From Paenibacillus albus (GTDB lineage Bacteria > Bacillota > Bacilli > Paenibacillales > Paenibacillaceae), in contig NZ_CP034437.1 in NCBI RefSeq assembly GCF_003952225.1, forward strand, positions 3,470,001 through 3,534,000: a DNA stretch of 64,000 bases. The letters run 5' to 3'. Made by a program: the position numbers and the translations under genes. Below, piece after piece: positions 19,923 to 39,916 of this stretch; within the stretch, counting starts at the first letter, position 1; each line of letters opens with the position of its first letter. Under the pieces are notes generated by a model. The model was not told the origin of the DNA. It did no database searches and saw only the letters and a program-made list of their open reading frames with translations.

Positions 19923-20022
19923 CGTTCTCTATGGCTGTGGGATTTTATACTATGGATTGATTGATACGATGGCATGAATTATGATAGTAGTCACACTCTT
20001 GAGCTAGAGGAAGGCATTATTT

Positions 20023-21303
20023 ATGTGGAAGTACACAGCAGGTTTAGTACAGGATCTATCACCAGGGGTCAAAAGATTCATCGCAACAGAAAGCCTATTC
20101 GGAATCGGAGCGGGCATATTCAGTCTTATTCTGAACTTGCATCTGCTCGCGCTTGGTTTCTCGGAAGGGGTCATCGGGCAGATTACGTCGCTTGGAGCGC
20201 TCACCGTCGGATTAACCAGCCTTCCAGCCGGCCTAATTGTCAAGCATGTCGGCCGTAAACGGATGCTGATCATCGGTATCATGCTGGCTTGCATCTCGCT
20301 TATCGTGTTCGGCTTCGGCACGAGCAGGGGAGAGATAACCGTCGCTCAGCTCATCTGGTCGCTCGGCGTTACCGCGATTGTGAATTCGGAAATTCAACTG
20401 ATTTTCCAATATTGCCGAACTAAGAAAGAAGAGACGAGTGCTTACTCGCTGCTCTTTGCCATCTTCACGCTATTCACCGGAGTCGGCACGATGCTCGGCG
20501 GGTTTCTGCCAGACTGGATTGGCGGGTCGACGACCGTGTATCAGAATGCTTTCTTCGTAGCGGCAGGCTGTTTCGCGATAATGGCATTACTGCGAGGATT
20601 GCTTCTTCCCTCTTCAAGCGGCATCGGCAAGTTTGCTGGTGCTGGTGTCAAAGTAATCGGAGAGCGACAAGCTGCGGCTGAATCTGGAGAGCATGAGAAA
20701 AGTAAGAAGCGGCATGCCTTCTACTTCCTGCTTATGCTGTCGCTGCTGATCTTTAGCAATGGGTTTACATATGGACTCGTCAGCCCGTTCCTGAATGTCA
20801 TCTTGAAGTTCCGCTTTGATATGAGCGATGGCTCGATCTCGAGCTTACTCGCGCTCTCCGGCGTATTCTTCTTCATCGGTTCGATGATTGTGCCTTACTT
20901 CGTCGATAGGTGGGGTAGCCGGCGGACGTTTATGATCATATTCGTGTGCAACATCGTGCTTGCCTGTCTGATGGCGATTATCATGCCGGCTGCATCATTC
21001 ACGGTGCTGCTGATGATTAGAGGCACAGGCATCACGATGCTGAACAATCTCATCGACAGCGAATCGATGTCCGCTGTATCCGAAGAGGACCGCAATCTGT
21101 TCGCCGGAATGCGCACCGTATCGAGAAGCATCGGCAATACGATTGCGTCGTATTGGGCAGGGTATATACTGGCGGGCGGACATTATTCGCTGCCGTTCCT
21201 GCTTACCGCCGCGGCATTGCTGGCTGGCTTCCTCATCTATATCTGGGTGGTGCAAGGCAAGCTGGATCAGAGGCTGAAGCAGAAGGAACTCGCGTCATCT
21301 TAG
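20023..21303 (+). CDS. Major facilitator superfamily transporter
   Basis: A 426-residue membrane protein with about 12 helices in two halves joined by a polar loop near residues 205-230 (ESGEHEKSKKR). KHVGRKRMLIIGI matches the MFS loop 2-3 motif, and a second copy, DRWGSRRTFMII, occurs in the C-terminal half. Substrate unknown; a drug or metabolite exporter is likely from the neighbours. AGAGGAAGG precedes ATG 20023. A strong terminator follows. Confidence 0.88.
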   Translation: MWKYTAGLVQDLSPGVKRFIATESLFGIGAGIFSLILNLHLLALGFSEGVIGQITSLGALTVGLTSLPAGLIVKHVGRKRMLIIGIMLACISLIVFGFGTSRGEITVAQLIWSLGVTAIVNSEIQLIFQYCRTKKEETSAYSLLFAIFTLFTGVGTMLGGFLPDWIGGSTTVYQNAFFVAAGCFAIMALLRGLLLPSSSGIGKFAGAGVKVIGERQAAAESGEHEKSKKRHAFYFLLMLSLLIFSNGFTYGLVSPFLNVILKFRFDMSDGSISSLLALSGVFFFIGSMIVPYFVDRWGSRRTFMIIFVCNIVLACLMAIIMPAASFTVLLMIRGTGITMLNNLIDSESMSAVSEEDRNLFAGMRTVSRSIGNTIASYWAGYILAGGHYSLPFLLTAAALLAGFLIYIWVVQGKLDQRLKQKELASS

Positions 21304-21312
21304 TCGATTACC

Positions 21313-21362
21313 TTAACACGAAGAAAGCAGTGACCGATGGGGTCACTGCTTTCTTCGTGTAT
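21313..21362. terminator. Bidirectional terminator between convergent genes
   Basis: A stem of about 20 pairs: ACACGAAGAAAGCAGTGACC and its complement, with a loop around GATG. It sits between the MFS gene and the convergent winged-helix gene and can serve both. Confidence 0.85.
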
Positions 21363-21377
21363 ACTCTTGAATTCTCC

Positions 21378-21836
21378 TCAGTTCGCAATCCGCTTCAACT
21401 CTGGAAATTCATCCAGATAACCGGAATGCTTCAGCTCTTGCAAAGCAAGGCTCACGCTGTTCTCGTCTTCGCTGGATTGATCGGATAACGCGAGCAGCTC
21501 ATCCAGACTCGCGTTTGGATGTGCTTTGAAATAGGTGAGCAGCCCTTTGGCTGCCCAAGAGAGGCGGTCGTCGTTAAACTCGCCGACGAGATGCTTGAAC
21601 ATTTTGTGCGAGATGAGCTTGTGGTCGGAGAGTTCCCGAGTCGCTTTAATGACTTGCTTCACGGACATCCGTCCTTTGCTCGCCATTTCGGACAAGCTGA
21701 GTGACATCGAATCCGCAGCGCTTGAGCTGAGGACGATATAAATCATTTGCGAGTAAATATCTAGATGAGGATTCGTGAAAATTTCAGTTGATACAGTAAA
21801 ATTGCGAGCCGCAGCTGCAGCTGATTCGGTAGCCAT
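21378..21836 (-). CDS. Winged-helix domain protein
   Basis: A 152-residue protein that reads as a winged helix-turn-helix. LDIYSQMIYIVLSS is followed by LSLSEMASKGRMSVKQVIKATRELSDHKLI, a helix-turn-helix pattern with a recognition helix. A second helical unit carries AKGLLTYFKAHPNASLDELLAL and a further ALQELKHSGYLDE, so there may be two winged helices in tandem, as in replication-initiator or DnaD-like proteins. Function unknown. GGAGGGAG precedes ATG 21836 on the minus strand. Confidence 0.7.
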   Translation of the reverse strand: MATESAAAAARNFTVSTEIFTNPHLDIYSQMIYIVLSSSAADSMSLSLSEMASKGRMSVKQVIKATRELSDHKLISHKMFKHLVGEFNDDRLSWAAKGLLTYFKAHPNASLDELLALSDQSSEDENSVSLALQELKHSGYLDEFPELKRIAN

Positions 21837-21917
21837 TGGACGATTCTCCCTCCACTTCGGTACTATCCTTATAGAATACGAGATGGCGGCTCCGATTCAG
21901 GGGTTTATGAAGAGTTT

Positions 21918-22472
21918 CTAACCTTTGCCAATCGCCTTCCGCGCCGCATTGTGCGCGAGCCGGTGCAGCGGATTGCCTTTCTTATGCTTGCCGATATACT
22001 TGACTTCGACCTGAATGGTTGGATATTTCTCTTTCAGCTGCTCGCATTCGGCTATGATTGCCGCTCTAGCTTCTTCGTAATAGGCATTCGTAAAGCTTGG
22101 CCTCGACATAAGCTTCATGATCGCATGGCAATCGGAGTATACGACGGCACTCTTAGGCAAGGCGGCTTCCTCGAGCGTCAGCTGTTCCAACAATTCTGCA
22201 AGAAGCTTAACCCCGAACGCGATCGCAAGCATTTCCCCGTAATTAGAGCCTAGTTCATAATCATGTGTCAGCTGCCGGCCACTCACGTACATACTTCGGT
22301 TATATGCTAGGCAGCAGCCAGCGCCATGAACAGCCTCACCGGCTGCGCCGGAATAATCGCCGTAGATCGAGACGACCGTGGAATTGACGAGATGTGCCCG
22401 GACGGATGGGGTTTCGTAGGCTTGTTTGAGATAAGAATTAGACCTCTTATGTTGATCCGTAAGCAGTAGCAA
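21918..22472 (-). CDS. RNase H-like (reverse-transcriptase-like) protein
   Basis: A 184-residue protein of the RNase H fold. The first strand has IYGDYSGAAGE with the catalytic Asp, the second acidic site is the Glu in SNYGEMLAIAFG, and the third is the Asp in VVYSDCHAIM. The fourth site, normally Asp in NxxADxLA, here reads NPLHRLAHNAARKA, with His instead. It may cut RNA-DNA hybrids or only bind them. Start is TTG 22472 with AAGGAGG 7 bases upstream on the minus strand. Confidence 0.75.
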   Translation of the reverse strand: MLLLTDQHKRSNSYLKQAYETPSVRAHLVNSTVVSIYGDYSGAAGEAVHGAGCCLAYNRSMYVSGRQLTHDYELGSNYGEMLAIAFGVKLLAELLEQLTLEEAALPKSAVVYSDCHAIMKLMSRPSFTNAYYEEARAAIIAECEQLKEKYPTIQVEVKYIGKHKKGNPLHRLAHNAARKAIGKG

Positions 22473-22557
22473 CCTTTTTCCTCCTTGATAGTTACATAGA
22501 AGCTAGCATTGACCATTATAGAATGAATCAGACAACAGAAGCGAGCGGAAATAGTCA

Positions 22558-22621
22558 TTGACGAGCTGTAATAAACCTCATACAATAATGTTTAGAAAAA
22601 GTTGCGCAAAAAATTGCGCAA
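22558..22621 (+). promoter_or_regulatory. Promoter with two tandem TTGCGCAA operators, upstream of GH31 gene
   Basis: A sigma-A type promoter: -35 TTGACG at 22558-22563, a 17-base spacer and -10 TACAAT at 22581-22586. Two perfect palindromes TTGCGCAA lie at 22602-22609 and 22614-22621, centres 12 bases apart and just after the expected transcription start. The central CpG suits a LacI-family repressor, and such a gene follows GH31. Confidence 0.75.
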
Positions 22622-22652
22622 ATGCAGAAAAAAGAAAGCTGGTGCAGCTCAC

Positions 22653-24206
22653 ATGAACAAATGGATAGAATTTGATTTGCTCCCAGGGGAGGTATGGTGG
22701 GGCGGTGCCGTACATGACGGTCCGCGCATGCCTTATGGTCAACAAACAGAAGCACCAGTAGGAGCAGATCTCCGAAACTTGCTGGAAAATTCAGGTGCAC
22801 CGTTGCTCGTATCGAATCGCGGAAGATATGTTTGGCTTCATCGTCCTTTTACTTTTCAATTTCAAACAGGCCGCTTAAAGCTGGAGACAGAAGGGGAGTT
22901 CGATCAACTTGATCCCTTAGAGGAAGGGCACGGCGATCTGAAAGGCGCCTATCTTCATGCATCCCGGAACTATTTTCCGGCTCAAGGCCGTATGCCTGAT
23001 CCAATGGCGTTCACTACGCCGCAATACTGTACTTGGATGGAAATGCACTACGAGCCGACCCAAGAGAAAACGATTGCCTATGCCAGGGAGATTATTCGCA
23101 ATGGTTTTCCGCCTGGCGTGCTGATTATCGACGACAACTGGATGAAGGATTATGGGACATGGGAGTTCCACGCGGAGCGGTTCCCGGATCCGAAGCAGAT
23201 GATCGACACGCTGCACGAGATGGGCTTCAAGATTATGTTGTGGGTTTGCCCTTACGTGAGCCCTGACAGCCAAACTGCTCGCGCGCTTGCGAAACAAGGG
23301 CTGCTTGTACAAGATGCGGAAGGGCGAACTGCGCTTCGCCGCTGGTGGAATGGCTGCAGCGCCGTGCTTGATTACACATATTCGCCGGCTTTGGCTTGGT
23401 TCAAGGAGAAGCTGGATCTGCTCGTGCAGCGATACGGTGTAGACGGCTTCAAATTCGATGCAGGCGATCCAACCGGAAACGATCCTGAGGCATGGGTGAC
23501 GAGCTATACATGGAGAAGCTCAAACGTTCCTAATGAGGACTGCGCGGCATATAGCACACTTGGGCAGCATTACCCGTTGAGCGAATATCGAGCGAGCTGG
23601 AAGGCAGGCGGAGCCCCGCTCATGCAGCGGCTTCGCGATAAGCCGCATTCATGGGGGAAAGACGGGCTGAATTCGCTCATCCCGAACGCAATTGCCCAGG
23701 GGCTGATGGGTTATCCGTTCAATTGTCCGGATATGGTTGGCGGCGGCTGGGACGGTGATCTGCAAGCAACGCCATTCGATGCGGAGCTATTCGTTAGATA
23801 TGCCCAGTGCGCGGCTTTGTTCCCCATGATGCAGTTCTCGACCGCTCCATGGAATGTGCTGGACGCGTCCCACTTAGAATATTGTCAAGCAGCGGTTCGG
23901 CTGCGCACGGAGCTCGGACCGGAGATCGCAAAGCTAGCTGAACATGCAGGTACGACGGGGGAACCCGTACTTAGGCCGATGGCCTACGAGTTCCCGAATC
24001 ACAACTGGGAGACGGTAAGCGATCAATTCATGCTCGGTTCTTCCATTATGGTGGCGCCGGTGCTGGAAAAAGGAGCAGAGGAGCGTATCGTTCGCTTCCC
24101 AGAAGGCGCGTGGAGGGGACAAGATGGCACTCTCGTAACAGGTCCTTGCACGATAACGGCAGCTGCACCGCTCTCAACTTTGCCGTGGTACCGATTGGAA
24201 AAATAA
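22653..24206 (+). CDS. Glycoside hydrolase family 31 enzyme (NET37/MYORG-like branch)
   Basis: A 517-residue cytoplasmic glycosidase with a retaining mechanism. The nucleophile is Asp269 in GFKFDAGDP; the acid/base is probably an Asp in the later PDMVGGGWDGD. IIDDNWMKDYGTWEF and AALFPMMQFSTAPW are strong GH31 marks. The KFDAGD and MQFSxxPW motifs resemble the NET37/MYORG group, for which alpha-galactosidase activity is known, rather than classic alpha-glucosidases or xylosidases. No signal peptide, so the substrate is imported first. Start ATG 22653 has only a weak ribosome site. Predicted to be repressed by the LacI protein that follows. Confidence 0.85.
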   Translation: MNKWIEFDLLPGEVWWGGAVHDGPRMPYGQQTEAPVGADLRNLLENSGAPLLVSNRGRYVWLHRPFTFQFQTGRLKLETEGEFDQLDPLEEGHGDLKGAYLHASRNYFPAQGRMPDPMAFTTPQYCTWMEMHYEPTQEKTIAYAREIIRNGFPPGVLIIDDNWMKDYGTWEFHAERFPDPKQMIDTLHEMGFKIMLWVCPYVSPDSQTARALAKQGLLVQDAEGRTALRRWWNGCSAVLDYTYSPALAWFKEKLDLLVQRYGVDGFKFDAGDPTGNDPEAWVTSYTWRSSNVPNEDCAAYSTLGQHYPLSEYRASWKAGGAPLMQRLRDKPHSWGKDGLNSLIPNAIAQGLMGYPFNCPDMVGGGWDGDLQATPFDAELFVRYAQCAALFPMMQFSTAPWNVLDASHLEYCQAAVRLRTELGPEIAKLAEHAGTTGEPVLRPMAYEFPNHNWETVSDQFMLGSSIMVAPVLEKGAEERIVRFPEGAWRGQDGTLVTGPCTITAAAPLSTLPWYRLEK

Positions 24207-24208
24207 AT

Positions 24209-24237
24209 TTGACTCCTTTTTGCGCAAATTTTACACT
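24209..24237 (+). promoter_or_regulatory. Promoter with TTGCGCAA operator, upstream of lacI-type gene
   Basis: -35 TTGACT at 24209-24214, a 17-base spacer and -10 TACACT at 24232-24237. The palindrome TTGCGCAA at 24220-24227 lies inside the spacer, so bound repressor would block polymerase. This suggests autoregulation. Confidence 0.7.
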
Positions 24238-24271
24238 ATAGATAAAGCTTTGCTTGAAAGGAGCCGCATCT

Positions 24272-25288
24272 ATGAAATTGAAAGAGATTGCTGCGAAGGC
24301 GAATGTATCGGTCAGCACGGTTTCGCGCATTATTAACAATCAAGGCAACTTCAGCGAAGATACGAGACGCAAGGTAATGGAGGTCGCCAAGCAGTATTTA
24401 AAGCCAGGTGCGACACCTGAGAAGCTGACAGGAATTAGCTATACTTTTGCCGTATTCGTGCCGGAAGTGCATGATTTTGTAGATAATGATCCTGCTACCT
24501 CAGCGGACTTGAATCACTTGAAAGAAGAGTGTGAAGCAAGCGGTCATCAGTTTATGATGGCGACTCGTTCCCGTGGCAATCACAGCGCAAGCTCAGCCTA
24601 TCGGCTGCTGACGGAGAACAAGATCGACGCTGCGATCGTATTCGATCCATATGTTGATGATAATCTGGTCGATGAGCTGATCGCGAGGCGCATCCCTTAT
24701 CTTGTGACCAACGGCAGAAGCTATGATCGGCGTCAAAATTATATCGATTACGATAATCGAAGAGGCGCATATGAAGTTATCCAGCACTTGTATCGACTTG
24801 GCCATCGCCGTATCGGTCTACTTACCGGACCCGAGGATCATCTGGTCAGCATGAACCGGCTCGATGGCTGTAAGGATGCTTTCCGAGATTTATTGCTGGA
24901 CTGGGATGAACAGAACGTAAGGATGGGCGCATTCGATCCTTCGCACGGTTATCAGGCGGCCAAGGAGCTGTTCGGACAGCCAAGCGGCAATACCGCCTTG
25001 TTCGCTTTCAATGACATGATCGCCTTCGGCGCCATGAAAGCACTCGCGGAATTGAAGCTTAAAATTCCGAAGGACGTCTCGTTAGTCGGCTTCGACGATC
25101 TGAAGATGTCGGAATACATGACGCCGCCGTTAACGACGGTTAAGCGATTTCGTTACGACATCAGCGGACTCATCGTAAAGATGCTCACAGAGCTCGTAAC
25201 GAATCCGACGATCTCAGAAGTGAATATTAGTCTGAAGACAGAACTCATTGAGCGCGACTCCTGTGCGGCAGTGCATGCGAGAGCCTGA
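24272..25288 (+). CDS. LacI family transcriptional regulator
   Basis: A 338-residue repressor. The helix-turn-helix, LKEIAAKANVSVSTVSRIIN, opens the protein, followed by a hinge region and a periplasmic-binding-like effector domain (AAIVFDPYVD, LGHRRIGLLTG, FAFNDMIAFGAMKAL, VSLVGFDDLKMSEYMTPPLTTV). The last block is a standard LacI/GalR signature. AAAGGAG stands 8 bases before ATG 24272. It sits directly behind the GH31 gene and in front of the sensor module; TTGCGCAA sites near both and before the transporter operon suggest it controls all of them, with a sugar as inducer. A terminator follows. Confidence 0.9.
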   Translation: MKLKEIAAKANVSVSTVSRIINNQGNFSEDTRRKVMEVAKQYLKPGATPEKLTGISYTFAVFVPEVHDFVDNDPATSADLNHLKEECEASGHQFMMATRSRGNHSASSAYRLLTENKIDAAIVFDPYVDDNLVDELIARRIPYLVTNGRSYDRRQNYIDYDNRRGAYEVIQHLYRLGHRRIGLLTGPEDHLVSMNRLDGCKDAFRDLLLDWDEQNVRMGAFDPSHGYQAAKELFGQPSGNTALFAFNDMIAFGAMKALAELKLKIPKDVSLVGFDDLKMSEYMTPPLTTVKRFRYDISGLIVKMLTELVTNPTISEVNISLKTELIERDSCAAVHARA

Positions 25289-25336
25289 CAAGAAGAAGCA
25301 AGTCGGCGAATGTGACCGGCTTGCTTCTTTTTAGTA
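25289..25336 (+). terminator. Rho-independent terminator after the lacI-type gene
   Basis: GAAGCAAGTCGG pairs with CCGGCTTGCTTC (one G-U pair), loop around CGAATGTGA, followed by TTTTT. It separates the regulator from the sensor operon. Confidence 0.85.
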
Positions 25337-25491
25337 TCCACACATTAAAATTTGGTCCAATATCTTTAATTCTCGGCATCGCATTCATCTGAGCTGCCAT
25401 GACAAAATGAAAGAGCGCGAGTACGGTTCATTTTTCAGAGATGCCGTGGTATCGTGGTAAGGTCAAGTTACTCTAGTCCGGAGGCTTCCAG

Positions 25492-27039
25492 ATGACCAGT
25501 CGAACGATTTACCTGTTTGCAGTAACTGCACTCCTTGCGCTGATTATTCTATATGGAGCTTGGAAGGGCATAGGTCCTTTCACCTCAGGCACAACTAAAG
25601 ATTCCAAAGAAGCATCTGCCTCGTATGAAGCCGCTGATGGCGGGCCGCTTATTACGCTAAAGATGATAATGCCCGGCGATGAATCGGCTCGCATGCGGGA
25701 ATTCGTAGATAATGAACTAAACACTCGTATGGCAAAAGAATTGAAGCTAAAGCTAGAGATCACTTATATTCCATGGTCCGATTATCAATCGAAGCTGGAG
25801 CTTGCGCTGTCGACCGGACAAGACTACGATTTGTTCTGGTATGGTACGCCGTTTGTCGCCGACTATAAGGCGAAGGGGTACTTGAAGCCGCTGGACGCTC
25901 TGCTGCATCAATTCGGGCATGCTTTGACAGCTAACATTCCGGCTGACAACTTCAAGCTCGATGAAATCGACGGCAAGCTGTGGGCGATTCCTTCCCAAGC
26001 TTTCACTTCGGCAGGCAAGTTTACATCCGTCATGGTACGGCAGGATTTGCTCGAGTCGGTTGGAATGGAGACGATTCGAACGATCGCTGACTTGGAAGCG
26101 TTTTATACGAAGATGCATGCCATTGATCCGAGTTATTACGGGTATTTGGAGACGGACCGGGGGCAGGATGTTCTATGGCGCGAGCTGTCGGAATCGCCTC
26201 TCACTTTCCTTGATGAGAACCAGATGTTCGCCGTCGACGAGCAGACCGGCAAGCTTGTCAGCTATCTTGAATCCGAGCTGTATAAGAAGGTGGCGGAAGT
26301 TCGGCAGCGGTGGGTTCGCATGGGTCTGATCGACAAGAGACTCATTGGCAATTTGGCGGCTAATATCGATCAAGAAGATGCGGGCAAGCTGCTGTTTCGC
26401 GTCGGCGCGGTTTCCCGGGCGATGGAGAACTTGCAGACCGCGCAGAATGCGAATGCGTCGGCTAAGCTTAGGGAGTACTATCTCTCGCCGGAGAAGCCCA
26501 AGTATATCGCGGCGCCTTCCAATGAAGCATATATGATTCCGAAGAATGCTCAGCATCCCGAGCAAGCGATGCAGTTTATGAACTGGATCCTGCAAAGCAA
26601 GGAGCATTATAACTTCATTATCTACGGCGTCGAAGGGAAGGATTACCGGACAGAGAACGGTAAAATCAAGCTGCTGACGAACGATCAGTTGATGTATGAG
26701 TGGATGTGGCGCAACAGCAATTATTTCATGGCGCCGGACAGCGCCCCTAACTCTGTCGTGAGCGATATGCTGCATAACGATGATAATGCGCGAATCTCGC
26801 GATTGTTCGGATTCCATTTCAATCAGGAGCCGGTAAAGAACGAATACGCCAAATTGCTCGCGGTATATAACGAGAAATTCGTTCCCATTAATGTGGGTAT
26901 CGTCAGCTACGCCGATCATTATAAAGCTGCCATTGCTGCTCTGAAGACGGCGGGTTATGACAAGGTTTGGGCTGAGCTTCAGAAGCAGTATGCCGCATTC
27001 AGGGCGAGTCAGTCAGCTGCTGCGGATGAGGAGGAATAA
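25492..27039 (+). CDS. Membrane-anchored sugar solute-binding protein, likely sensor subunit
   Basis: A 515-residue family 1 extracellular solute-binding protein. The N-terminus has a helix at about residues 5-22 but no lipobox Cys, so it is anchored by an uncleaved helix. The binding fold has GQDYDLFWYGTPFVADY, GYLKPLDALL, GKLWAIPSQAF and NEAYMIPKNAQHPEQAMQFMNWI. It is followed directly by a LytS-type kinase and YesN regulator (2-base gap), while the transporter genes lie 3.5 kb on with their own lipoprotein. This order is like XylFII-LytS-YesN of clostridia, where the binding protein senses xylose for the kinase. I infer a sensor role here. CGGAGG precedes ATG 25492. Confidence 0.8.
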   Translation: MTSRTIYLFAVTALLALIILYGAWKGIGPFTSGTTKDSKEASASYEAADGGPLITLKMIMPGDESARMREFVDNELNTRMAKELKLKLEITYIPWSDYQSKLELALSTGQDYDLFWYGTPFVADYKAKGYLKPLDALLHQFGHALTANIPADNFKLDEIDGKLWAIPSQAFTSAGKFTSVMVRQDLLESVGMETIRTIADLEAFYTKMHAIDPSYYGYLETDRGQDVLWRELSESPLTFLDENQMFAVDEQTGKLVSYLESELYKKVAEVRQRWVRMGLIDKRLIGNLAANIDQEDAGKLLFRVGAVSRAMENLQTAQNANASAKLREYYLSPEKPKYIAAPSNEAYMIPKNAQHPEQAMQFMNWILQSKEHYNFIIYGVEGKDYRTENGKIKLLTNDQLMYEWMWRNSNYFMAPDSAPNSVVSDMLHNDDNARISRLFGFHFNQEPVKNEYAKLLAVYNEKFVPINVGIVSYADHYKAAIAALKTAGYDKVWAELQKQYAAFRASQSAAADEEE

Positions 27040-27040
27040 G

Positions 27041-28756
27041 GTGCGCTCCAGCATTTTTACAAACATGGTTATTGCTTTGCTGCTGCTATTGACCCCGATT
27101 ATTATGCTGTACGCTTATTCGAACCGAACGAGCTCCCGTGTCCTGACAGAGGAGATCGTCAAGGCGAAGCGCACGCAGGTTGAAACTTTCGTCGGCCAGC
27201 TCGGCCAAATGTTCGCGCAATTCGATTCCTATCAGAAAATGCTCTATGAAAGCACGGAAGTCCGCAACCTGGCCTACCCCGATCTGCTCGGTGACGATCT
27301 CCTCCATTACCGGACGTTGAAGACGGTGTCCGAGGAAATCAATCGGCTGGCGGGGTCCGGCAGGTGGAAGGGGATTATTGCGGTCGTCTACCCGAAGACA
27401 GGGATGATCATTAAGAGCAATTCCAGCTTAAACGCGATGCCGCCTGCGCTGCCAGATAAGGATGCATTCTGGTCCTACCAGAAACGGGTGAATGGCGAGC
27501 CGTATTTCATTGAGACGATCTCGAGCCCTGCCAAAACCGCGAAGGCCGAGGAATCGGACCTGACAGTCATTGCGAAAGTGGATGAAGGCGAAATAAAGAG
27601 CGATCTGTCCGATATGAAGAACAAAGGGCTGGAGGATCCTTTTCTCTATAAGCCCGGGTTTACGCCGATCTACAACTACACGGCCAATAAAGCACTAATT
27701 GAGCAGATGCTGCCTGATCTGCTGCCGAGCGAACATAGTGACGAGAGCAGCTATAAGCCGCTTCTCATGCAGACCGAGAATGGCGCTTACCAGGTTCATA
27801 TGGAGGTCGTTCAGCCTTTGGGCTGGTATTTGGTCGATTATGTGCCGATTGACAAAATAATGGCGCCGATCAAACGAAATCAGACGACCTTCTACATTAT
27901 AAGCGGCATGATGCTGTTCATGGCGTGCATTCTAGGCTTTATTCTGTACCGGAGTATTCGAATTCCTTTCCGTAAGCTGATGCAGGGGATGAATTTCATT
28001 GAGAAGGGCATATATACAAGCCGCATGAAGGACCCGCCAAGAGGCGAATTCCGGTATTTATATCAACGATTCAACTCGATGGCGACGCGAATCGAGGAGC
28101 TGATCGAGGATGTGCTCAAGGAACAGATCCGGACGAAGGAAGCGAACGTCAAGCAGCTGCAATCACAGATTAACCCGCATTTCCTCTACAATACTCTAGC
28201 CTACATCAAGAGCATGGTGGAGCTTGGCGAGAGGGAAGCGGCGGTGTCGATGACGATGAATTTGAGCAAATATTACCGTTATACAACGAAGACTAGCCGC
28301 AGCTTAGCGACGCTCGGGGAAGAGCTGGAGCTTGTCGTCAACTATCTGGACATTCACCGGATGCTGACCGACGACTTTGAATATGAGATCGATATTGAAC
28401 CGGCAGTGCTGGAGATGGAGATCCCGAGGCTGACGCTGCAGCCGCTTGTCGAGAATGTGATCCTGCATGCGTTCCGCAAGCCTGTCCAGTATGGCATCGT
28501 CCGTATCCGAGGAAGCGTCGAAGCAGGCATCGCGAGAATCGTCGTCGAGGACAATGGACCTGGCATTCCGCCTGTGCAATTGGAACAGATGATGTCGAGG
28601 ATTCGCAATGCAGCGAGCGGGGAGATCGATTCCGGCTTGCAAAATGTACACCAGCGGCTGGTGCTGCTCTATGGCGGCGGCTCGGGACTTATGCTCCGCA
28701 TGTCCGAGTGGGGCGGATTAAGCGCAGAGATGAGCTGGTTTGTTCAAGATGAATGA
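27041..28756 (+). CDS. LytS/YesM-type sensor histidine kinase
   Basis: A 571-residue membrane kinase. The first helix is at residues 6-25, an extracytoplasmic sensor domain extends to about residue 280, the second helix is at 285-307 and a HAMP-like linker follows. The His_kinase block is QSQINPHFLYNTLAYIK, with phosphorylated His; the ATPase has VVEDNGPGIP. Start is GTG 27041, where GAGGAGG lies 6 bases upstream. The gene sits 2 bases after the solute-binding gene and 15 before the regulator gene. It probably receives sugar status through the binding protein. Confidence 0.88.
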   Translation: MRSSIFTNMVIALLLLLTPIIMLYAYSNRTSSRVLTEEIVKAKRTQVETFVGQLGQMFAQFDSYQKMLYESTEVRNLAYPDLLGDDLLHYRTLKTVSEEINRLAGSGRWKGIIAVVYPKTGMIIKSNSSLNAMPPALPDKDAFWSYQKRVNGEPYFIETISSPAKTAKAEESDLTVIAKVDEGEIKSDLSDMKNKGLEDPFLYKPGFTPIYNYTANKALIEQMLPDLLPSEHSDESSYKPLLMQTENGAYQVHMEVVQPLGWYLVDYVPIDKIMAPIKRNQTTFYIISGMMLFMACILGFILYRSIRIPFRKLMQGMNFIEKGIYTSRMKDPPRGEFRYLYQRFNSMATRIEELIEDVLKEQIRTKEANVKQLQSQINPHFLYNTLAYIKSMVELGEREAAVSMTMNLSKYYRYTTKTSRSLATLGEELELVVNYLDIHRMLTDDFEYEIDIEPAVLEMEIPRLTLQPLVENVILHAFRKPVQYGIVRIRGSVEAGIARIVVEDNGPGIPPVQLEQMMSRIRNAASGEIDSGLQNVHQRLVLLYGGGSGLMLRMSEWGGLSAEMSWFVQDE

Positions 28757-28771
28757 GGGAGCGTAAACCGC

Positions 28772-30388
28772 ATGTATGAAATATTGATCGTGGACGATCA
28801 TACGCACTTGGTGGACAGCTTGGCAAGCGGATTGCCTTGGGAGCAAATGGGCATCTCTGCCGTTCATAAAGCCTATTCCGGCGAGGAAGCGCTGGAGCTG
28901 CTGCAATATCATGATATCGACCTGATCGTGACCGACATACAGATGACGGGAATAAGCGGTCTCGAGCTCATCTCGGTCGTAAGGGAAAAGTGGGCTAAGA
29001 TTAGGTCCGTCATCTTAACGGGTCATGATGAATTCCAATATGCGCAGGAAGCGATTCGAACAGGTATTTGCGATTATCTTCTGAAGCCAGTGTCCAATGA
29101 GGAGCTGGAAAAGACGATCCGTGCGTTAATCGTGGAGCTGGAGCTTGAAGGGGAGCAGTTGGTCAATCAGCAGAAGCTGTCGTATCTGTTCCGGGAAAGT
29201 ATGCCGAAGCTGCGCGAGTCCTTGCTTCGGGAGCTGATCGCGGGTAAGCTGCCGCCGCACTCCGTGCTTCGTGACAAGCTGAATCTCTATGAGCTGTCCT
29301 TTCATGAACAGAATCCGATTCTCATGTTCTGCATGCGCATCGAAGAGGATTTTATCGGGACGGATCTATACAGCGTGTCGCTGCTTGAATATGCACTGAC
29401 GAATATTGCCGATGAGATTTTCTCCCCGCGATTCCATATTTGGAACTGCAAGGACGACCATGACTATCAGGTCTTTCTCGCTTGTCCTAAGCAGTTCTCC
29501 GAAGGCACGGGCAAGGATTGGATGGAGGAAGCGGAACGATTGGCCCGGCTTGTGCAACATCAGATCAAACGATTTCTGCGAATCAAAGTATCGCTCGTTA
29601 TGAGCAATTGGAGCTCGTTTCCGTCTGAGGTGCCAGCGGTTTATCATACGATGCTGGCGCTGTTCACGGACTATATTGGATTCCAGACGGAGAGCTTCTT
29701 CCACGATCTCCAGGAAAGAAGCTTCGAAGAAATACGCCCATTATCTGAGCTTTACGTAGCCCCTACCTTCATGCAATTGTTGGAGGTTGAACAGTGGAGC
29801 GCTGCTGAGGAGAAGATGAAGCGGGTGTTCGAGGAGTTGACGAGCAGGGAGAATCGTACGAAAGAGCATATGTTCGAGGTATACATTACGCTCATGCAAG
29901 CCTTCTCCTATTACGTGCATAAGAAGGGGAAACGGTTCTACGATATTTATGGTCGGGAAGCGGATAAAATGCTGAAGCTCGATGCGGGATGGAGTATGGA
30001 GCCTTTACGGGAATGGTCGATGCAGAGTCTGCAGCAGCTGAAGTCCTACAGCGGCAGCTTGTCCGACAACCTGCGGGGCGATATCATCAAGCGAATCATC
30101 CGCTTCGCTAACGAGCAGGTGAAGGATGTGACACTGCAATCCGCAGCGGATTATGTCCATCTGCATCCGGTGTATGTCTCTAACCTGTTCAAGGCAGAGA
30201 CAGGTGAGAACTTCTCGAACTACGTGCTTCGCGTTCGGATGGATGCCGCTTTGCAGCACCTGAAGCAGACGGATTTGAAGATTAGTCAGATTGCTCAGGA
30301 GGTCGGTTATCAGAAGCCGCAATATTTTATTAAGCTGTTCAAGAATCACTTCGGCATGACGCCGCAGGAATATAGGAGCGGGCTCTAG
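28772..30388 (+). CDS. YesN/AraC-type response regulator
   Basis: A 538-residue regulator. The receiver domain has IVDDH at the start, phosphoacceptor Asp55 in VTDIQM, LTGHDEF and DYLLKP. The middle part is a long helical domain typical of YesN proteins. The C-terminal AraC domain carries YVHLHPVYVSNLFKAETGENFSNYV and IAQEVGYQKPQYFIKLFKNHFGMTPQEYR. It would activate the transporter operon that follows. Target sites were not defined. Confidence 0.9.
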   Translation: MYEILIVDDHTHLVDSLASGLPWEQMGISAVHKAYSGEEALELLQYHDIDLIVTDIQMTGISGLELISVVREKWAKIRSVILTGHDEFQYAQEAIRTGICDYLLKPVSNEELEKTIRALIVELELEGEQLVNQQKLSYLFRESMPKLRESLLRELIAGKLPPHSVLRDKLNLYELSFHEQNPILMFCMRIEEDFIGTDLYSVSLLEYALTNIADEIFSPRFHIWNCKDDHDYQVFLACPKQFSEGTGKDWMEEAERLARLVQHQIKRFLRIKVSLVMSNWSSFPSEVPAVYHTMLALFTDYIGFQTESFFHDLQERSFEEIRPLSELYVAPTFMQLLEVEQWSAAEEKMKRVFEELTSRENRTKEHMFEVYITLMQAFSYYVHKKGKRFYDIYGREADKMLKLDAGWSMEPLREWSMQSLQQLKSYSGSLSDNLRGDIIKRIIRFANEQVKDVTLQSAADYVHLHPVYVSNLFKAETGENFSNYVLRVRMDAALQHLKQTDLKISQIAQEVGYQKPQYFIKLFKNHFGMTPQEYRSGL

Positions 30389-30423
30389 GTTTAGGGGGCC
30401 TGCTTTTTTATTTGGACAAATAG

Positions 30424-30452
30424 TTGCGCAAATTCAAGTAAAATCATATTAA
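30424..30452 (+). promoter_or_regulatory. Probable promoter with TTGCGCAA operator, upstream of sugar transporter operon
   Basis: TTGCGCAA at 30424-30431 overlaps a -35-like TTGCGC; TATTAA at 30447-30452 is 17 bases on and could be the -10. A second near-match, ATGCGCAA, is at 30553-30560, which could allow looping. No other plausible promoter was seen. The regulator gene upstream ends at 30388. Confidence 0.6.
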
Positions 30453-30552
30453 ATCTTGGGCTTAAATCTTAAAATCAGGGCATTTAACCGCGATTCTCCT
30501 TCGGGTATGATGAAATCACAAGGTTAACTTGTGCAGCAGAGCTTGAGAAAAT

Positions 30553-30560
30553 ATGCGCAA
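30553..30560 (+). promoter_or_regulatory. Second TTGCGCAA-like operator before the transporter lipoprotein
   Basis: ATGCGCAA, one mismatch from the palindrome, with the core TGCGCA intact. It is about 130 bases after the first site and 49 before the start codon. Confidence 0.5.
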
Positions 30561-30608
30561 ATTTTTCTTGGTGCTGCGATTTCATAACGAACTCAAGGGG
30601 GAAATACA

Positions 30609-31967
30609 ATGGCATTTCGTAATAAAGCTTGGATCTCCGCAATGAGCTTGGTGATTGTCTCCACAATGGCGCTGACCGGCTGTGGCAGCAACAACAACTC
30701 GTCAGACAGTACGAACAATGCTTCGAATTCATCAGGCGGCAATAATACAGCTTCGAACAACAAGTCAAGCAACACCTCTGATGCTCCTAAAGAAAATGTC
30801 ATCCTCACGTACACGATTTGGGACCAGCTGCAGCAGCCTGCAATGGAAGCGATAGGCAAAGAATTCACCGCTCAGAACCCGAACATTAAAGTGAAAGTCG
30901 AAGTAATTCCTTGGGGCGATTACTGGACGAAGATGTCTGCAGCCGCACCGGCTGGTACGCTGCCAGATGTGTTCTGGATGCATAGCGGACAATTCGTGAA
31001 ATATGCTTCGGGCAAATTCCTGGAGCCGATTACGGACAGAGTGACGAATGGCGAGCTTGATCTGAATAACTACGCATCGAACCTCGGCTCGATCTATACG
31101 CTGGACGGGCAAAACTATGCGGTCCCGAAGGATTTTGACACGATCGGTCTTGCTTATAATAAAGATCTGTTCGATCAAGCGGGCATCCCTTATCCGGATG
31201 ACACATGGGATTATGCAAAACTAGCTGATACAGCGAAGAAGCTGAGTCAGCCAGATAAAGGCATCTATGGCTTCGCAGCGAAAATGGATACGCAAACCGG
31301 CTATTGGAACGATATGCTGGCGAACGGCGGCTCGATTCTGACTGCGGACGGTACGAAGTCCGGCTATGATGATCCGGCATCGATCGAAGCGCTGAAAGCC
31401 CGTTATCAGATGATTGTCGATAAAGCATCGCCGACGCATCAGCAAATGACGGATACGGATTCGACGGAAATGTTCAAGTCCGGCAAAGTGGCGATGGTGT
31501 TCGAAGGCGACTGGAGAACGACAGACATCGACAGCAGCGATATCGTGAAGGGCAAATGGAATTGGGCGAAGCTGCCTAAAGGCAAAGTGAAGCGCGGCAA
31601 CATCATCAACGGTCTTGGCAACGTGATGTCGGCTTCGGGCAAGCATAAAGCAGAAGCATGGGAGTTCCTGAAGTTCCTCGGCTCGAAGCGCGCAGCGGAA
31701 ATTACCGCAGAAATGGGCGCAGCGATTCCAGCCTTCAAAGATACGCAAGCAGCTTGGGTGAAATCGAAGCCGGAGCTGAATCTGCAAGTATTCATTGATC
31801 AAACGGCTGACGCGATCCCGTATCCTGCAGGCTCGAAAGCATATCCGGTTTGGTTCCCGAAAGAAGCGGAAATTATGGCACAGGCTTGGGGCGGCCAAAT
31901 CTCCATTGAAGACGGAGCAAAGCAAGTCGCTGAGATGATGAATCAAGCGATTGCCGACAACAAATAA
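30609..31967 (+). CDS. Sugar ABC transporter substrate-binding lipoprotein
   Basis: A 452-residue family 1 solute-binding protein. The signal peptide ends in the lipobox LTGC with Cys25, followed by a Ser/Asn-rich linker. The fold has LTYTIWDQLQQPAMEAIGKEF, PDVFWMHSGQFVKYA and NYAVPKDFDTIGLAYNKDLF, like MalE/UgpB proteins. It delivers a sugar to the two permeases behind it. AAGGGGGAA precedes ATG 30609. A hairpin after the stop probably protects this mRNA part. Confidence 0.92.
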   Translation: MAFRNKAWISAMSLVIVSTMALTGCGSNNNSSDSTNNASNSSGGNNTASNNKSSNTSDAPKENVILTYTIWDQLQQPAMEAIGKEFTAQNPNIKVKVEVIPWGDYWTKMSAAAPAGTLPDVFWMHSGQFVKYASGKFLEPITDRVTNGELDLNNYASNLGSIYTLDGQNYAVPKDFDTIGLAYNKDLFDQAGIPYPDDTWDYAKLADTAKKLSQPDKGIYGFAAKMDTQTGYWNDMLANGGSILTADGTKSGYDDPASIEALKARYQMIVDKASPTHQQMTDTDSTEMFKSGKVAMVFEGDWRTTDIDSSDIVKGKWNWAKLPKGKVKRGNIINGLGNVMSASGKHKAEAWEFLKFLGSKRAAEITAEMGAAIPAFKDTQAAWVKSKPELNLQVFIDQTADAIPYPAGSKAYPVWFPKEAEIMAQAWGGQISIEDGAKQVAEMMNQAIADNK

Positions 31968-31991
31968 GCAAGTAAGCGTTGATAGAAAGAA

Positions 31992-32028
31992 GCCTGAGGC
32001 ATTCCGTTTGTAGCGGGATGCCTCAGGC
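31992..32028 (+). other. Strong intercistronic hairpin without T tract
   Basis: GCCTGAGGCAT and ATGCCTCAGGC form a near-perfect stem of 11 or more pairs. No T run follows, so it is not a standard terminator. It lies between the lipoprotein and the permease genes, where such hairpins often raise the ratio of binding protein to permease by stabilising the upstream mRNA. Confidence 0.7.
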
Positions 32029-32049
32029 AAATGATAGGGAGGGTAGGCC

Positions 32050-32919
32050 ATGAATTCGAGAAGCAGGTATGTATGGGCATATGCCATGATCGCACCTACC
32101 TTGATCGGCACGGTCTTATTCTGGAGCTGGCCGGCTATCTACTCGATATATCTTAGTTTTTTGAAATCCGAAAACTTCGGGATGATTAATCATTGGATCG
32201 GGCTTGCGAATTACGAGAAGCTGTTCAAGGATAAGGAGTTTTGGAAAAACTTACGGAACACGCTCTACTACACGGTGCTGTTCGTACCGGTAACGCTTGT
32301 GTTCTCGACGCTCTTTGCGGTTCTGCTCAATGCGAAGATCAAAGGGCAGTCCGTGTATCGCGTCATCTTCTTCCTGCCTCAAGTGACAATGCCTGCGGCT
32401 GCGGCTATGGTGTGGATCGTGCTGTTCGCGCATGATTATGGGCTGATCAACTTCGTGCTTGGCACGGATGTCGCCTGGATCTCCGATAAGCATTTTGCAA
32501 TGATCGCTCTTGTTATCGTTGGGGTGTGGGGGGCAATTGGTTTCAATATGCTGCTCATCCTGGCTGGCTTGCAAGGCATACCAAGATCGCTGTACGAAGC
32601 TGGAGAAATCGACGGTGCGGTTGGGCTTCGCAAGTTTCGTTACATTACACTTCCGTTGTTAACGCCGACGCTGTTCTTCACAACTGTCGTGCTGATGATC
32701 GGCGCCACGCAAATCTTTGATTCCATCTACTTATTAATCGGCAAGACGAATGTTGCGCTGCCTGCCGTACGCTCGCTCGTGTATGCGTATTATCAGAATT
32801 CCTTCGTTTATTATGATCAGAATTATGGCGCGGCGATTGTAGATATTTTGCTCATCATTAACTTGATTCTAACAGGGGTTCAGTTTGCATTTCAGAAGAA
32901 ATGGGTCGTCTACGACTGA
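32050..32919 (+). CDS. Sugar ABC transporter permease (MalF-like)
   Basis: A 289-residue membrane protein with six helices. The EAA loop that docks the ATPase is SLYEAGEIDGAVGLRKFRYITLP at about residues 178-200. It begins with AMIAPTLIGTVLFWSWPAIYSI, usual for MalF-type subunits of family 1 sugar importers. It pairs with the next gene. No ATPase gene is nearby. Confidence 0.92.
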   Translation: MNSRSRYVWAYAMIAPTLIGTVLFWSWPAIYSIYLSFLKSENFGMINHWIGLANYEKLFKDKEFWKNLRNTLYYTVLFVPVTLVFSTLFAVLLNAKIKGQSVYRVIFFLPQVTMPAAAAMVWIVLFAHDYGLINFVLGTDVAWISDKHFAMIALVIVGVWGAIGFNMLLILAGLQGIPRSLYEAGEIDGAVGLRKFRYITLPLLTPTLFFTTVVLMIGATQIFDSIYLLIGKTNVALPAVRSLVYAYYQNSFVYYDQNYGAAIVDILLIINLILTGVQFAFQKKWVVYD

Positions 32920-32933
32920 GGAGGGGATAAGGA

Positions 32934-33818
32934 ATGACAAGCTCAAGCTCAACCATAAGCCCAAGCACGCGCATAAACGCAAACGCAAGCAAACAAAGCC
33001 ATTCGCGCAGCTCGAATTGGATCATTCACGTGGTGCTCATTGCGGCTTCCATTATCATGATTATCCCCTTCGGTTGGATGATCCTGACTTCGTTCAAGAC
33101 CGTGACCGAAGCGACGCAAATTCCGGTCGTCATCTTCCCGGCACATCCCGATTGGAGCAGCTACGCGAAGGCATTCGAGAAATCGGATTTCACGCACTAT
33201 TATTTGAACACTGCGTTTGCAGCGCTGATGAAGACGTTGTTTCCAGTCATCTTTAGCTCGATGGCCGCTTATGCTTTCGCTAGAATTCGGTTTCCCGGAA
33301 GGACGCTGCTATTCTTTATCATCATCTCGGTCATGATGGTGCCTAACCCGGTCTTCTACACGCCTCAATATTTGCTCATGAGCAAATGGGGCTTAGTTAA
33401 TACGGTGACTGCGCTGTGGATCTGTTCATTAGTCAGTCCGTTTGCTACATTCATGCTCAGGCAATTCTTTCTTGGCATTTCCAAAGAGCTGGAGGAAGCT
33501 GCGATTCTGGATGGCTGCAATCCGTTCCAGACGTTCCGATATATTATGCTGCCTTTAGTTAAATCGGCGCTCGTAGCCATCGTCATTATCCAATTACTAT
33601 GGTCGTGGAATGAGCTGCAATGGCCGCTCATTATCAATAGCTCGCCTGACAAGCTGACATTATCCTCTGGGCTTGCAACGTTGGTTTCCATGTTCGGAAC
33701 GAACTATCCCGTGTTGATGGCTGGTGCGATCATGGCAGTCATTCCGATGATTCTGTTGTTCTTTATTTTCCAGAAGCGATTTATTGAAGGCGTTGCATTT
33801 AGCGCGCATAAAGGATAA
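32934..33818 (+). CDS. Carbohydrate ABC transporter permease (MalG-like)
   Basis: A 294-residue six-helix permease. The EAA loop is ELEEAAILDGCNPFQTFRYIMLP near residue 185. MIIPFGWMILTSFKTVTEA and the C-terminal FQKRFIEGVAFSAHKG are marks of MalG-type subunits. The first 25 residues are unusually rich in Ser and Asn. It lies 14 bases after the other permease gene. A terminator follows. Confidence 0.92.
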   Translation: MTSSSSTISPSTRINANASKQSHSRSSNWIIHVVLIAASIIMIIPFGWMILTSFKTVTEATQIPVVIFPAHPDWSSYAKAFEKSDFTHYYLNTAFAALMKTLFPVIFSSMAAYAFARIRFPGRTLLFFIIISVMMVPNPVFYTPQYLLMSKWGLVNTVTALWICSLVSPFATFMLRQFFLGISKELEEAAILDGCNPFQTFRYIMLPLVKSALVAIVIIQLLWSWNELQWPLIINSSPDKLTLSSGLATLVSMFGTNYPVLMAGAIMAVIPMILLFFIFQKRFIEGVAFSAHKG

Positions 33819-33852
33819 TCACCTCCGTTCGGGGGATAGGTATCGCTCATTA

Positions 33853-33890
33853 CCTTGATGACCAACTCACTTGGTCTTCAAGGTTTTTCT
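33853..33890 (+). terminator. Rho-independent terminator after the sugar permeases
   Basis: CCTTGATGACCAA and TTGGTCTTCAAGG make a stem of about 13 pairs with one mismatch, loop CTCAC, followed by TTTTT. Confidence 0.8.
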
Positions 33891-34013
33891 ATGTTTTCTA
33901 ATAGTTTTAGACTATGAGTAAGGATGCTGTGCACCAGAAGCTATTGCGGACTTGTTCGGCGGCATAGTATGTTTAGCTTACAGCACCATATGAGCGCTTG
34001 GAGGAGGCTAAGC

Positions 34014-37462: not shown

Positions 37463-37478
37463 AGAGGGGGAGAGCATA

Positions 37479-39182: not shown

Positions 39183-39226
39183 TTAGATAAGGTAGGTAAG
39201 GGAACATGAATGCGGGAGGCTAAGGT

Positions 39227-39595
39227 ATGATTGTATGTCCCTATTGCGATCATGAGGTTGAGATTCACGGCGGAAGATGTCCGGAATGCAAGGAGTATCT
39301 GCATGAAGTGACGGATGAAGATTTCGCGGAGGATCGCGAGACGACGGGGATGAGCGTGAACGAGCTGATCGAGCATCGGTTCAAGTGCGCGAAGTGCCAG
39401 TCGAACGCAGGCCGGGTGAAGGAAGTATCAATGACAGGCGCAGGTCTTAGCAAGCTGCTCGATATCGAGCATAATCATTTCTTGTTCGTCTCGTGCCAAA
39501 ATTGCGGCTTCGTCGAAGTCTATGACCCGAATGTGCTGCACGGGAAGAAGGCGGGAAGCGTCGGCACGATATTGGATATTCTGTTTGGGAATTGA
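39227..39595 (+). CDS. Zinc-ribbon nucleic-acid-binding protein (DUF2082-like)
   Basis: A 122-residue protein with four CxxC pairs: CPYC, CPEC, CAKC and CQNC. The first two make one ribbon and the last two frame a GRVKEVSMTGAGLSKLLDIEHNHFLFVSC segment that matches the DUF2082 nucleic-acid-binding Zn-ribbon family. It sits between a lipoprotein gene and the permeases of the same transporter, 44 bases after the former, but no link in function is evident. GGAGG precedes ATG 39227. Confidence 0.8.
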   Translation: MIVCPYCDHEVEIHGGRCPECKEYLHEVTDEDFAEDRETTGMSVNELIEHRFKCAKCQSNAGRVKEVSMTGAGLSKLLDIEHNHFLFVSCQNCGFVEVYDPNVLHGKKAGSVGTILDILFGN

Positions 39596-39665
39596 TTGCT
39601 GCAGCGTACCTGCTGATTTGCACTGCGACAACCTTTACCGTTCAACCGAATTGTAAACAAAGCAG

Positions 39666-39697
39666 CCCTATTACCTGAAATGGTAATGGGGTTTTTG
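39666..39697 (+). terminator. Rho-independent terminator after the zinc-ribbon gene
   Basis: CCCTATTACC and GGTAATGGGG pair with one G-U, loop TGAAAT, followed by TTTTTG. It implies that the permease genes downstream have a promoter of their own. Confidence 0.8.
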
Positions 39698-39719
39698 TGT
39701 TGGACAGGTGAGAAGGGAT

Positions 39720-39836
39720 TTCGTTTCGCGCAAATCCGTTTCGCCGTATGAGGGGAACAGTGGATTTCGTTTTAGAATCACGCAAATCCATTTCGCCGTT
39801 TGAGGCGAACAGTGGATTTCGTTTTAGTCCAAAAAT
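39720..39836. repeat. Two-copy 52-base tandem repeat
   Basis: A 52-base unit beginning CGCAAATCC at 39729 recurs at 39781. Both copies contain TTTCGCCGT, GAACAGTGGATTTCGTTTTAG and a shared TGAGG core with a few substitutions. A partial unit (GGATTTCGTTTCG) precedes the first. It lies in the gap 39596-39916, after the terminator and before the permease promoter region. No protein is credible here. Confidence 0.8.
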
Positions 39837-39873
39837 CGTAGATTTCTCCATATTTTCGGCTTATCGCGTTCCG

Positions 39874-39879: not shown

Positions 39880-39916
39880 TGGACTAGAAATAGAATCCCA
39901 GGTGGAGTGATTAACG

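What the first reader, a model, noticed from the sequence alone, without database searches (positions are those of the whole stretch)
22558..30560. TTGCGCAA palindrome links a GH31 glycosidase, its LacI repressor and a sugar ABC operon
The perfect palindrome TTGCGCAA occurs twice after the glycosidase promoter (22602 and 22614), once between -35 and -10 of the lacI-type gene (24220) and once in the promoter region of the transporter lipoprotein gene (30424), with a near copy at 30553. All lie in control regions of one locus, and the central CpG is normal for LacI-type operators. This predicts one regulon: the repressor controls sugar entry, hydrolysis and itself, while the sensor operon lacks the site and is set separately.
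Basis: partly seen in the sequence, partly recalled or inferred. Interest (0 to 1): 0.75.

Follow-up and report, generated by a model that had tools for sequence, protein, structure and literature searches.

The report
Sugar operon repressor and its operators
A bacterium carries a sugar-use locus in which a LacI-type repressor very probably recognises the DNA word TTGCGCAA in front of a glycosidase gene, its own gene and, less surely, a sugar importer; it is a good new example of a familiar kind of genetic switch.

Summary
Their number in the window is unremarkable (5 found, 2.5 expected). Comparison makes the case. Orthologues of the lacI gene occur in 30 of 394 genomes of the bacterial family. 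TTGCGCAA lies within 420 bp upstream of GH31 in 24 of 27 copies from lacI+ genomes against 1 of 16 from lacI- genomes and ranks first of 256 palindromic 8-mers in four gene sets. Extra half-sites sit mostly 12-13 bp away, a spacing known for LacI-type operators (PMC4052901). So a LacI-type repressor with operator AAWWAWTTGC|GCAAWTWWTT is the best reading. The GH31 enzyme is most like alpha-galactosidases. Corrections: the near copy at 30553 belongs to a leader element also present where this LacI is missing. For the importer (23 of 28 vs 2 of 19) most sites are the divergent GH31 gene's own; only 7 of 28 have one within 100 bp, and 30424 has no positional counterpart in close relatives and lies beside probable response-regulator boxes. 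The contrasts are few on the tree. No binding was tested.

The parts
22558..22586 (+). promoter of the GH31 gene, TTGACG-17-TACAAT
   Evidence: consensus match only
22602..22609 (.). operator 1 of the GH31 gene (TTGCGCAA), about +13 from the inferred transcription start
22614..22621 (.). operator 2 of the GH31 gene, centre 12 bp from operator 1, 39 bp before the start codon
   Evidence: 22 of 27 GH31 copies in lacI+ genomes have a site at -36..-42
22653..24203 (+). GH31 glycosidase, probable alpha-galactosidase (517 aa)
   Evidence: Pfam PF01055, PF21365; best solved relative 8j50 GH31 alpha-galactosidase, E 1.7e-141; motif KFDAGD aligned
24209..24237 (+). promoter of the lacI-type gene, TTGACT-17-TACACT
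24220..24227 (.). operator of the lacI-type gene, between -35 and -10
   Evidence: 8 of 30 orthologues have an exact upstream site, 22 of 30 one with at most one mismatch within 100 bp
24272..25285 (+). LacI/GalR-family repressor (P0001, 338 aa)
   Evidence: PF00356 51.4 bits, PF13377 104 bits; orthologues in 30 of 394 genomes, the window's included
25492..27036 (+). solute-binding lipoprotein of the sensor operon (DUF3502/SBP); no exact operator upstream in this genome
26957..28753 (+). sensor histidine kinase (YesM-type; that name is recalled)
   Evidence: PF06580
28772..30385 (+). response regulator, receiver plus AraC-type HTH (YesN-type; that name is recalled)
   Evidence: PF00072, PF12833
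30424..30431 (.). candidate operator upstream of the importer operon, 185 bp before the start codon
   Evidence: position not shared by the nearest relatives
30446..30472 (+). direct repeat ATATTAA / ATCTTAA, 20 bp apart: probable response-regulator boxes (inference)
   Evidence: seen, with small changes, in all 9 importer upstreams aligned, lacI+ and lacI-; a relaxed pattern hits 18 of 47 importer upstreams, 0 of 43 GH31, 1 of 30 lacI, 1 of 23 DUF4832, 0 of 14 sensor upstreams and misses the window's own copy
30484..30511 (+). possible importer promoter TTAACC-16-TATGAT
   Evidence: weak consensus match
30548..30566 (.). leader element AAAATATGCGCAAATTTTT that holds the near copy 30553-30560; not specific to LacI
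   Evidence: loose pattern in 13 of 47 importer upstreams, 8 of them in lacI- genomes; 0 of 110 other upstreams
30609..31964 (+). sugar-binding lipoprotein of the ABC importer
   Evidence: PF01547
32050..32916 (+). importer permease A
   Evidence: PF00528
32934..33815 (+). importer permease B
   Evidence: PF00528

Best explanation
The locus is a sugar-use regulon under a LacI/GalR-family repressor. A repressor dimer binds the palindrome TTGC|GCAA with A/T-rich arms (about 20 bp). At the GH31 gene it sits just after the transcription start and blocks it; at its own gene it sits between -35 and -10. When the sugar (probably an alpha-galactoside or a product of it) enters and binds the repressor, the repressor lets go, and hydrolase and repressor are made. 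The ABC importer may also be a target (site at 30424) but keeps a second control, the sensor kinase/response regulator pair next door. Shown: sequence, position, conservation, co-occurrence of site and repressor gene. Inferred: binding, repression, release by sugar, the sugar's identity, dual control of the importer. The confidence given is for repressor, operator, GH31 and lacI; for the importer of this genome I give about 0.6.
For: Co-occurrence: GH31 upstream 24 of 27 (lacI+) vs 1 of 16 (lacI-); importer 23 of 28 vs 2 of 19; DUF4832 gene of relatives 17 of 21 vs 0 of 2. By genome 26 of 30 vs 2 of 19 (Fisher p 1e-7, which ignores relatedness and shared sites). TTGCGCAA ranks first of 256 palindromic 8-mers in all four gene sets. 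Position: -36..-42 from the start codon in 22 of 27 GH31 copies, although these proteins are 53-76% identical to the window's (one fragment 43%). lacI promoters: exact site in 8 of 30 (7 of the 8 just after a -35-like TTTGACT); in other genera TTGTGCAA just after the -10 box; exact or one-mismatch within 100 bp in 22 of 30, shuffles 3.3%. 66 sites symmetrised give a ~20-bp even palindrome with central CG, the usual LacI-type form (PMC4052901, section 9 read). Of 55 extra half-sites within 45 bp, 40 lie 12-13 bp and 4 lie 31-32 bp away (no shuffle control). The recognition helix VS[IV]STVSR is unchanged in 29 proteins aligned. In 7 of the 19 lacI- genomes, searched with all candidates scored, the paralogues are only 24-39% identical.
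Against: No binding data. On the importer-protein tree lacI changes only 5 times; independent contrasts are 4, going the same way in 2.4 on average and the other way in 0, too few for significance. Two lacI- genomes of one genus (G172, G229) have the site near the importer. Four lacI+ genomes (G309, G008, G027, G037) have no exact site at GH31, importer or DUF4832 genes in the stretches fetched. The 8-mer is not rare: 151 copies. In 17 of the 23 importer hits the site is shared with the divergent GH31 gene, and only 7 of 28 importers have one within 100 bp. 30424 is not where its relatives have theirs. The absence of the orthologue in 12 of 19 lacI- genomes rests, which scored five candidates per genome.
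Confidence: 0.88

Rival explanations
1. GH31 gene and repressor form the regulon, but the importer of this genome is not in it: the copy at 30424 does not work and the importer answers only to the sensor pair. (A narrower version of the best explanation, not exclusive of it.)
For: Site lies upstream of the probable boxes, position not shared by the five closest lacI+ relatives aligned; near copy not LacI-specific; most importer sites elsewhere are shared with GH31.
Against: One exact copy in 420 bp has a chance of about 0.01 from the genome count; 7 of 28 lacI+ importers have a site of their own within 100 bp.
Confidence: 0.35
2. TTGCGCAA is the site of another regulator that travels with the locus, such as the AraC-type response regulator, and the LacI-type gene is a passenger.
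For: Sensor, regulator and importer lie together; the importer promoter has direct repeats of the kind AraC-type regulators use.
Against: All 15 lacI+ genomes of genera g9 and g16 have the site, while their fetched stretches show no relative of this response regulator; in one of them, G237, the stretch ends inside a relative of the kinase (52%), so its regulator would lie outside, and sensors beyond the other stretches cannot be excluded. Two lacI- genomes with close relatives of the response regulator (G305, G316: 81-82%) have no TTGCGCAA in their 19-20 kb stretches. A perfect palindrome with central CG suits LacI-type better than AraC-type proteins (general knowledge).
Confidence: 0.05
3. 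The paired palindrome at 22602/22614 is an RNA hairpin (8-bp stem, 4-base loop) in the GH31 leader, an attenuator rather than an operator.
For: The two copies can pair; the scan lists the pair as terminator-like on the other strand.
Against: The lacI site lies in a promoter spacer, outside the transcript; 18 of the 24 GH31 copies with a site have one only, and the window's is the only pair 12 bp apart among them; presence follows the repressor gene.
Confidence: 0.03
4. Chance: a common 8-mer that happens to fall in three control regions.
For: Window count within chance (8 of 100 shuffles reach it).
Against: Orthologous positions and the ranking against 255 other palindromes.
Confidence: 0.02

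Closest known systems
LacI/GalR-family local sugar regulons (Ravcheev et al. 2014, PMC4052901; passages, section 9)
   Same: Even palindrome with central CG, sites mostly 30-140 bp before the start codon, frequent autoregulation, tandem sites with spacing peaks at 13 and 32 bp, neighbouring sugar genes.
   Different: Conservation here is strongest in the inner 8 bp; I did not find this orthologue group in the passages read (its supplements were not seen); hinge region unusual.
E. coli GntR sites at gntKU (as reported in PMC4052901)
   Same: Overlapping tandem operators about 13 bp apart.
   Different: Other effector and genes; in the DUF4832 promoters of relatives the outer copies often keep only the half that faces the centre.
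B. subtilis IolQ (PMC5504672, passages read)
   Same: LacI-type repressor; its high-affinity footprint, +4 to +30, happens to contain CTTGCGCAAAA.
   Different: The authors' consensus palindrome is AGAAAGCGCTTTCT, not TTGCGCAA; inositol gene.
GH31 alpha-galactosidases 8j50-8j53 and MYORG (PMC9491548, passages read)
   Same: Full-length similarity to 8j50 (E 1.7e-141), motif KFDAGD kept.
   Different: Substrate not tested; MYORG is a membrane-anchored protein and aligns over residues 95-496 only.

Membership tests
LacI/GalR family | N-terminal LacI-type HTH | tested here: met
   PF00356 51.4 bits, cut-off 27
LacI/GalR family | periplasmic-binding-protein-like effector domain | tested here: met
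   PF13377 104 bits, cut-off 26.5
LacI/GalR family | even palindromic operator with central CG | tested here: met
   66 sites symmetrised; sites were chosen by the core word, so only the arms are independent evidence; that this protein binds them is inferred
LacI/GalR family | binds DNA as dimer and is released by a sugar | not testable with these tools
   needs protein
CcpA-like subfamily (sense of PMC2329647, passages read) | hinge with conserved alanine and leucine | tested here: not met
   hinge two residues shorter than in the distant LacI proteins aligned; the leucine place holds L, I, V, M, F, Q or P; residues 44-53 have pLDDT under 50 in the model. Not filed in this subfamily.
GH31 alpha-galactosidase (8j50 type) | GH31 barrel and KFDAGD motif | tested here: met
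GH31 alpha-galactosidase (8j50 type) | activity on alpha-galactosides | not testable with these tools
   needs enzyme

The most novel reading that the evidence does not exclude
The overlapping arrays of this group (CGCAA-N4/5-TTGCGCAA-N4/5-TTGCG, centres 12-13 bp apart, outer copies keeping mainly the inward half), together with a shortened hinge without the conserved leucine, mark a LacI clade that binds overlapping sites in a mode not seen in solved structures, for instance two dimers sharing an A/T spacer. PMC4052901 leaves the mode at 13 bp open: it finds tetramer binding hard to reconcile with the structures and suggests partial unwinding. This clade would be a clean system to settle it.
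Probability: 0.2. Interest if true: 0.6.

Novelty: new member of a known kind. Interest (0 to 1): 0.35.

Why it matters
It gives an operator, a target list and a likely enzyme class for a LacI orthologue group in Cohnella- and Paenibacillus-type bacteria, and suggests one importer/hydrolase cassette that is held by a repressor in some lineages, by a sensor pair in others, and perhaps by both here. Its overlapping operators are a handle on the unexplained 13-bp spacing of LacI-type sites.

Tried and rejected
Rfam search of 20000-40000 gave three matches, all below their gathering scores. The importer leader folds only a little better than shuffles (z about -2), so no riboswitch is claimed. The stricter word WWWTTGCGCAAWWW has 4 places in the genome: the lacI site and three in ORFs. 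Another candidate target in this genome is 4341429, in the leader of another kinase/regulator/ABC operon; its conservation was not tested, so it is left open. Two further non-ORF places of the 12-mer (3158336 before a PrsW-type gene, 5488460 between a GntR-type regulator and an aldolase gene) were not followed. The one DUF4832 gene found in the genome (1729400) has no TTGCGCAA in the 14-kb stretch around it. The repressor model does not resolve the hinge. Literature: exact word with LacI (15 of 70 listed), LacI regulons (12 of 88), overlapping LacI sites (3 of 3), GH31 galactosidases (12 of 51 and 1 of 1), DUF4832 (3 of 3), Cohnella or Paenibacillus with LacI (10 of 62 and 8 of 23), YesN/YesM (8 of 39): no listed title describes this regulon; only open-licence PMC text is searched and most hits beyond the lists were not seen.

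Full report
Observation. The four perfect palindromes and the near copy are present at the stated places. The window holds five exact copies; the fifth, 44525, is inside an ORF. Shuffling gives 2.46 on average and 8 of 100 shuffles reach five, so frequency alone proves nothing. The genome (6,632,345 bp) has 151 copies; 101 are expected from the window's base composition. The flanked form WNTTGCGCAAAW has 19 places, four of them here, while 13 of the other 15 fall in ORFs by a mechanical ORF call. That ORF call also extends the GH31 frame over its two sites through a TTG; I take the start at 22653 because orthologues and the solved relative align from about residue 2-13 onward.

Genes. 22653-24203 is a GH31 enzyme whose closest solved relatives are GH31 alpha-galactosidases (8j50, E 1.7e-141), with the motif KFDAGD kept. 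24272-25285 is a LacI/GalR-family regulator. Then follow a solute-binding lipoprotein, a histidine kinase and a response regulator with AraC-type HTH, and an ABC importer (lipoprotein 30609-31964, two permeases).

Comparison. Orthologues of the regulator (E at most 1e-70) were found in 30 of 394 genomes of the family, the window's own included, and in 14 named loci: 7 Cohnella, 6 Paenibacillus, 1 Gordonibacillus (L065-L078). The importer lipoprotein was found in 47 of 394, of which 28 have the regulator and 19 do not; their surroundings were fetched. Within 420 bp upstream, TTGCGCAA is found for GH31 in 24 of 27 copies (lacI+) against 1 of 16 (lacI-), for the importer in 23 of 28 against 2 of 19, for a secreted DUF4832/CBM protein that belongs to the locus in relatives in 17 of 21 against 0 of 2, for a Gfo/Idh/MocA oxidoreductase in 1 of 21 against 0 of 3, and for the sensor operon in 2 of 11 against 0 of 3. 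GH31 and importer are often divergent and share sites: in 17 of the 23 importer hits the GH31 gene's own site is among them, and only 7 of 28 importers have a site within 100 bp of their start. By genome it is 26 of 30 against 2 of 19. Among all 256 palindromic 8-mers TTGCGCAA comes first in each of four gene sets; the runner-up reaches 8 of 27 (GH31), 8 of 28 (importer), 5 of 30 (lacI) and 4 of 21 (DUF4832). By genus, lacI+ then lacI-: g1 3 of 4 and 0 of 2; g2 8 of 11 and 0 of 8; g9 4 of 4 and 2 of 2; g16 11 of 11 and 0 of 1; g3 and g5 have only lacI- genomes, 0 of 1 and 0 of 5. On a tree of the importer protein both traits change five times; independent contrasts number four, in the same direction in 2.4 on average, never in the opposite one, which cannot reach significance. 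Seven of the 19 lacI- genomes were searched with all candidates scored and hold only paralogues 24-39% identical; the other twelve rest, which scored five candidates each.

Anatomy. GH31 sites lie 36-42 bp before the start codon in 22 of 27 copies, just after the -10 box in those printed. In the DUF4832 promoters of relatives (TTGACG, then TATACT) the array GCGCAA-N5-TTGCGCAA-N5-TTGCG covers the inferred transcription start; 15 of 21 have a site 28-50 bp before the start codon. The lacI gene has an exact site in 8 of 30 orthologues, in 7 of them just after TTTGACT (the window's lies between -35 and -10), and 22 of 30 have an exact or one-mismatch site within 100 bp, against 3.3% of shuffles; in the other genera it is mostly TTGTGCAA just after the -10 box. 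Symmetrising 66 sites gives AAWWAWTTGC|GCAAWTWWTT. Of 55 further half-sites within 45 bp, 40 are 12-13 bp and 4 are 31-32 bp away, over 85 oriented contexts in which shared sites count twice; no shuffle control was made. PMC4052901 (section 9) reports peaks at 13, 22 and 32 bp, central CG in most LacI-type motifs and, elsewhere, autoregulation in 72%; on the 13-bp overlap it finds tetramer binding hard to reconcile with structures and leaves the mode open.

The near copy at 30553 lies in AAAATATGCGCAAATTTTT. A loose pattern of that element is found in 13 of 47 importer upstreams, 8 of them in lacI- genomes, and in 0 of 43 GH31, 0 of 30 lacI, 0 of 23 DUF4832 and 0 of 14 sensor upstreams. In the 10 genomes where both patterns hit, it begins 102 bp after the first copy of a direct repeat ATCTTAA/ATCTTAA in 8, 101 and 105 bp in the other two. 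In the window the repeat is ATATTAA 30446 / ATCTTAA 30466, again 102 bp before the element. In the alignment of nine importer upstreams the repeat is kept with small changes in all, lacI+ and lacI- alike, the element in 7 by the pattern. I read the repeat as response-regulator boxes (inference). The perfect site at 30424 lies just before these boxes; five close lacI+ relatives have a site (1) or a remnant (4) about 50 bp further up, next to a divergent Gfo gene in four of them. So the importer in this genome may be under both systems, with the repressor's part less certain than for GH31.

The regulator itself. The recognition helix VS[IV]STVSR is unchanged in 29 proteins. The hinge region is two residues shorter than in the distant LacI proteins aligned, and the place of the conserved leucine holds L, I, V, M, F, Q or P. 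PMC2329647 (passages) links loss of that leucine to loss of the central CG; here the central CG stays. A model (mean pLDDT 85.7) gives residues 44-53 a pLDDT under 50, so nothing follows from it.

Verdict. A well-supported, ordinary kind of local LacI-type regulon with a newly inferred operator and targets: 0.88 for repressor and operator at GH31 and lacI, about 0.6 for the importer of this genome.

Noticed in passing
30446-30472 and 30548-30566: Direct repeat ATATTAA/ATCTTAA and, 102 bp on, a palindromic leader element with GCGC centre; both also occur upstream of importer genes in genomes without this LacI. What reads the second element is unknown.
   Followed up: partly
24392-24445 (hinge of the LacI-type protein): Short hinge without a conserved leucine in this orthologue group.
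   Followed up: partly
L219:7432 (own genome 4341431): TTGCGCAAAT in the leader of another kinase/regulator/solute-binding/permease operon; possible further target.
   Followed up: partly
L071:9215-12148, L069:9597-12515 and others: DUF4832 protein with carbohydrate-binding and fibronectin III domains, behind a TTGCGCAA site or array in relatives and missing from the window's locus.
   Followed up: partly
33924-39179: A second response regulator, histidine kinase and solute-binding protein follow the importer; no TTGCGCAA there.
   Followed up: no
L175:8668, L176:7790: Two genomes without this LacI have TTGCGCAA in front of the importer; leftover, chance or another LacI-type protein.
   Followed up: partly
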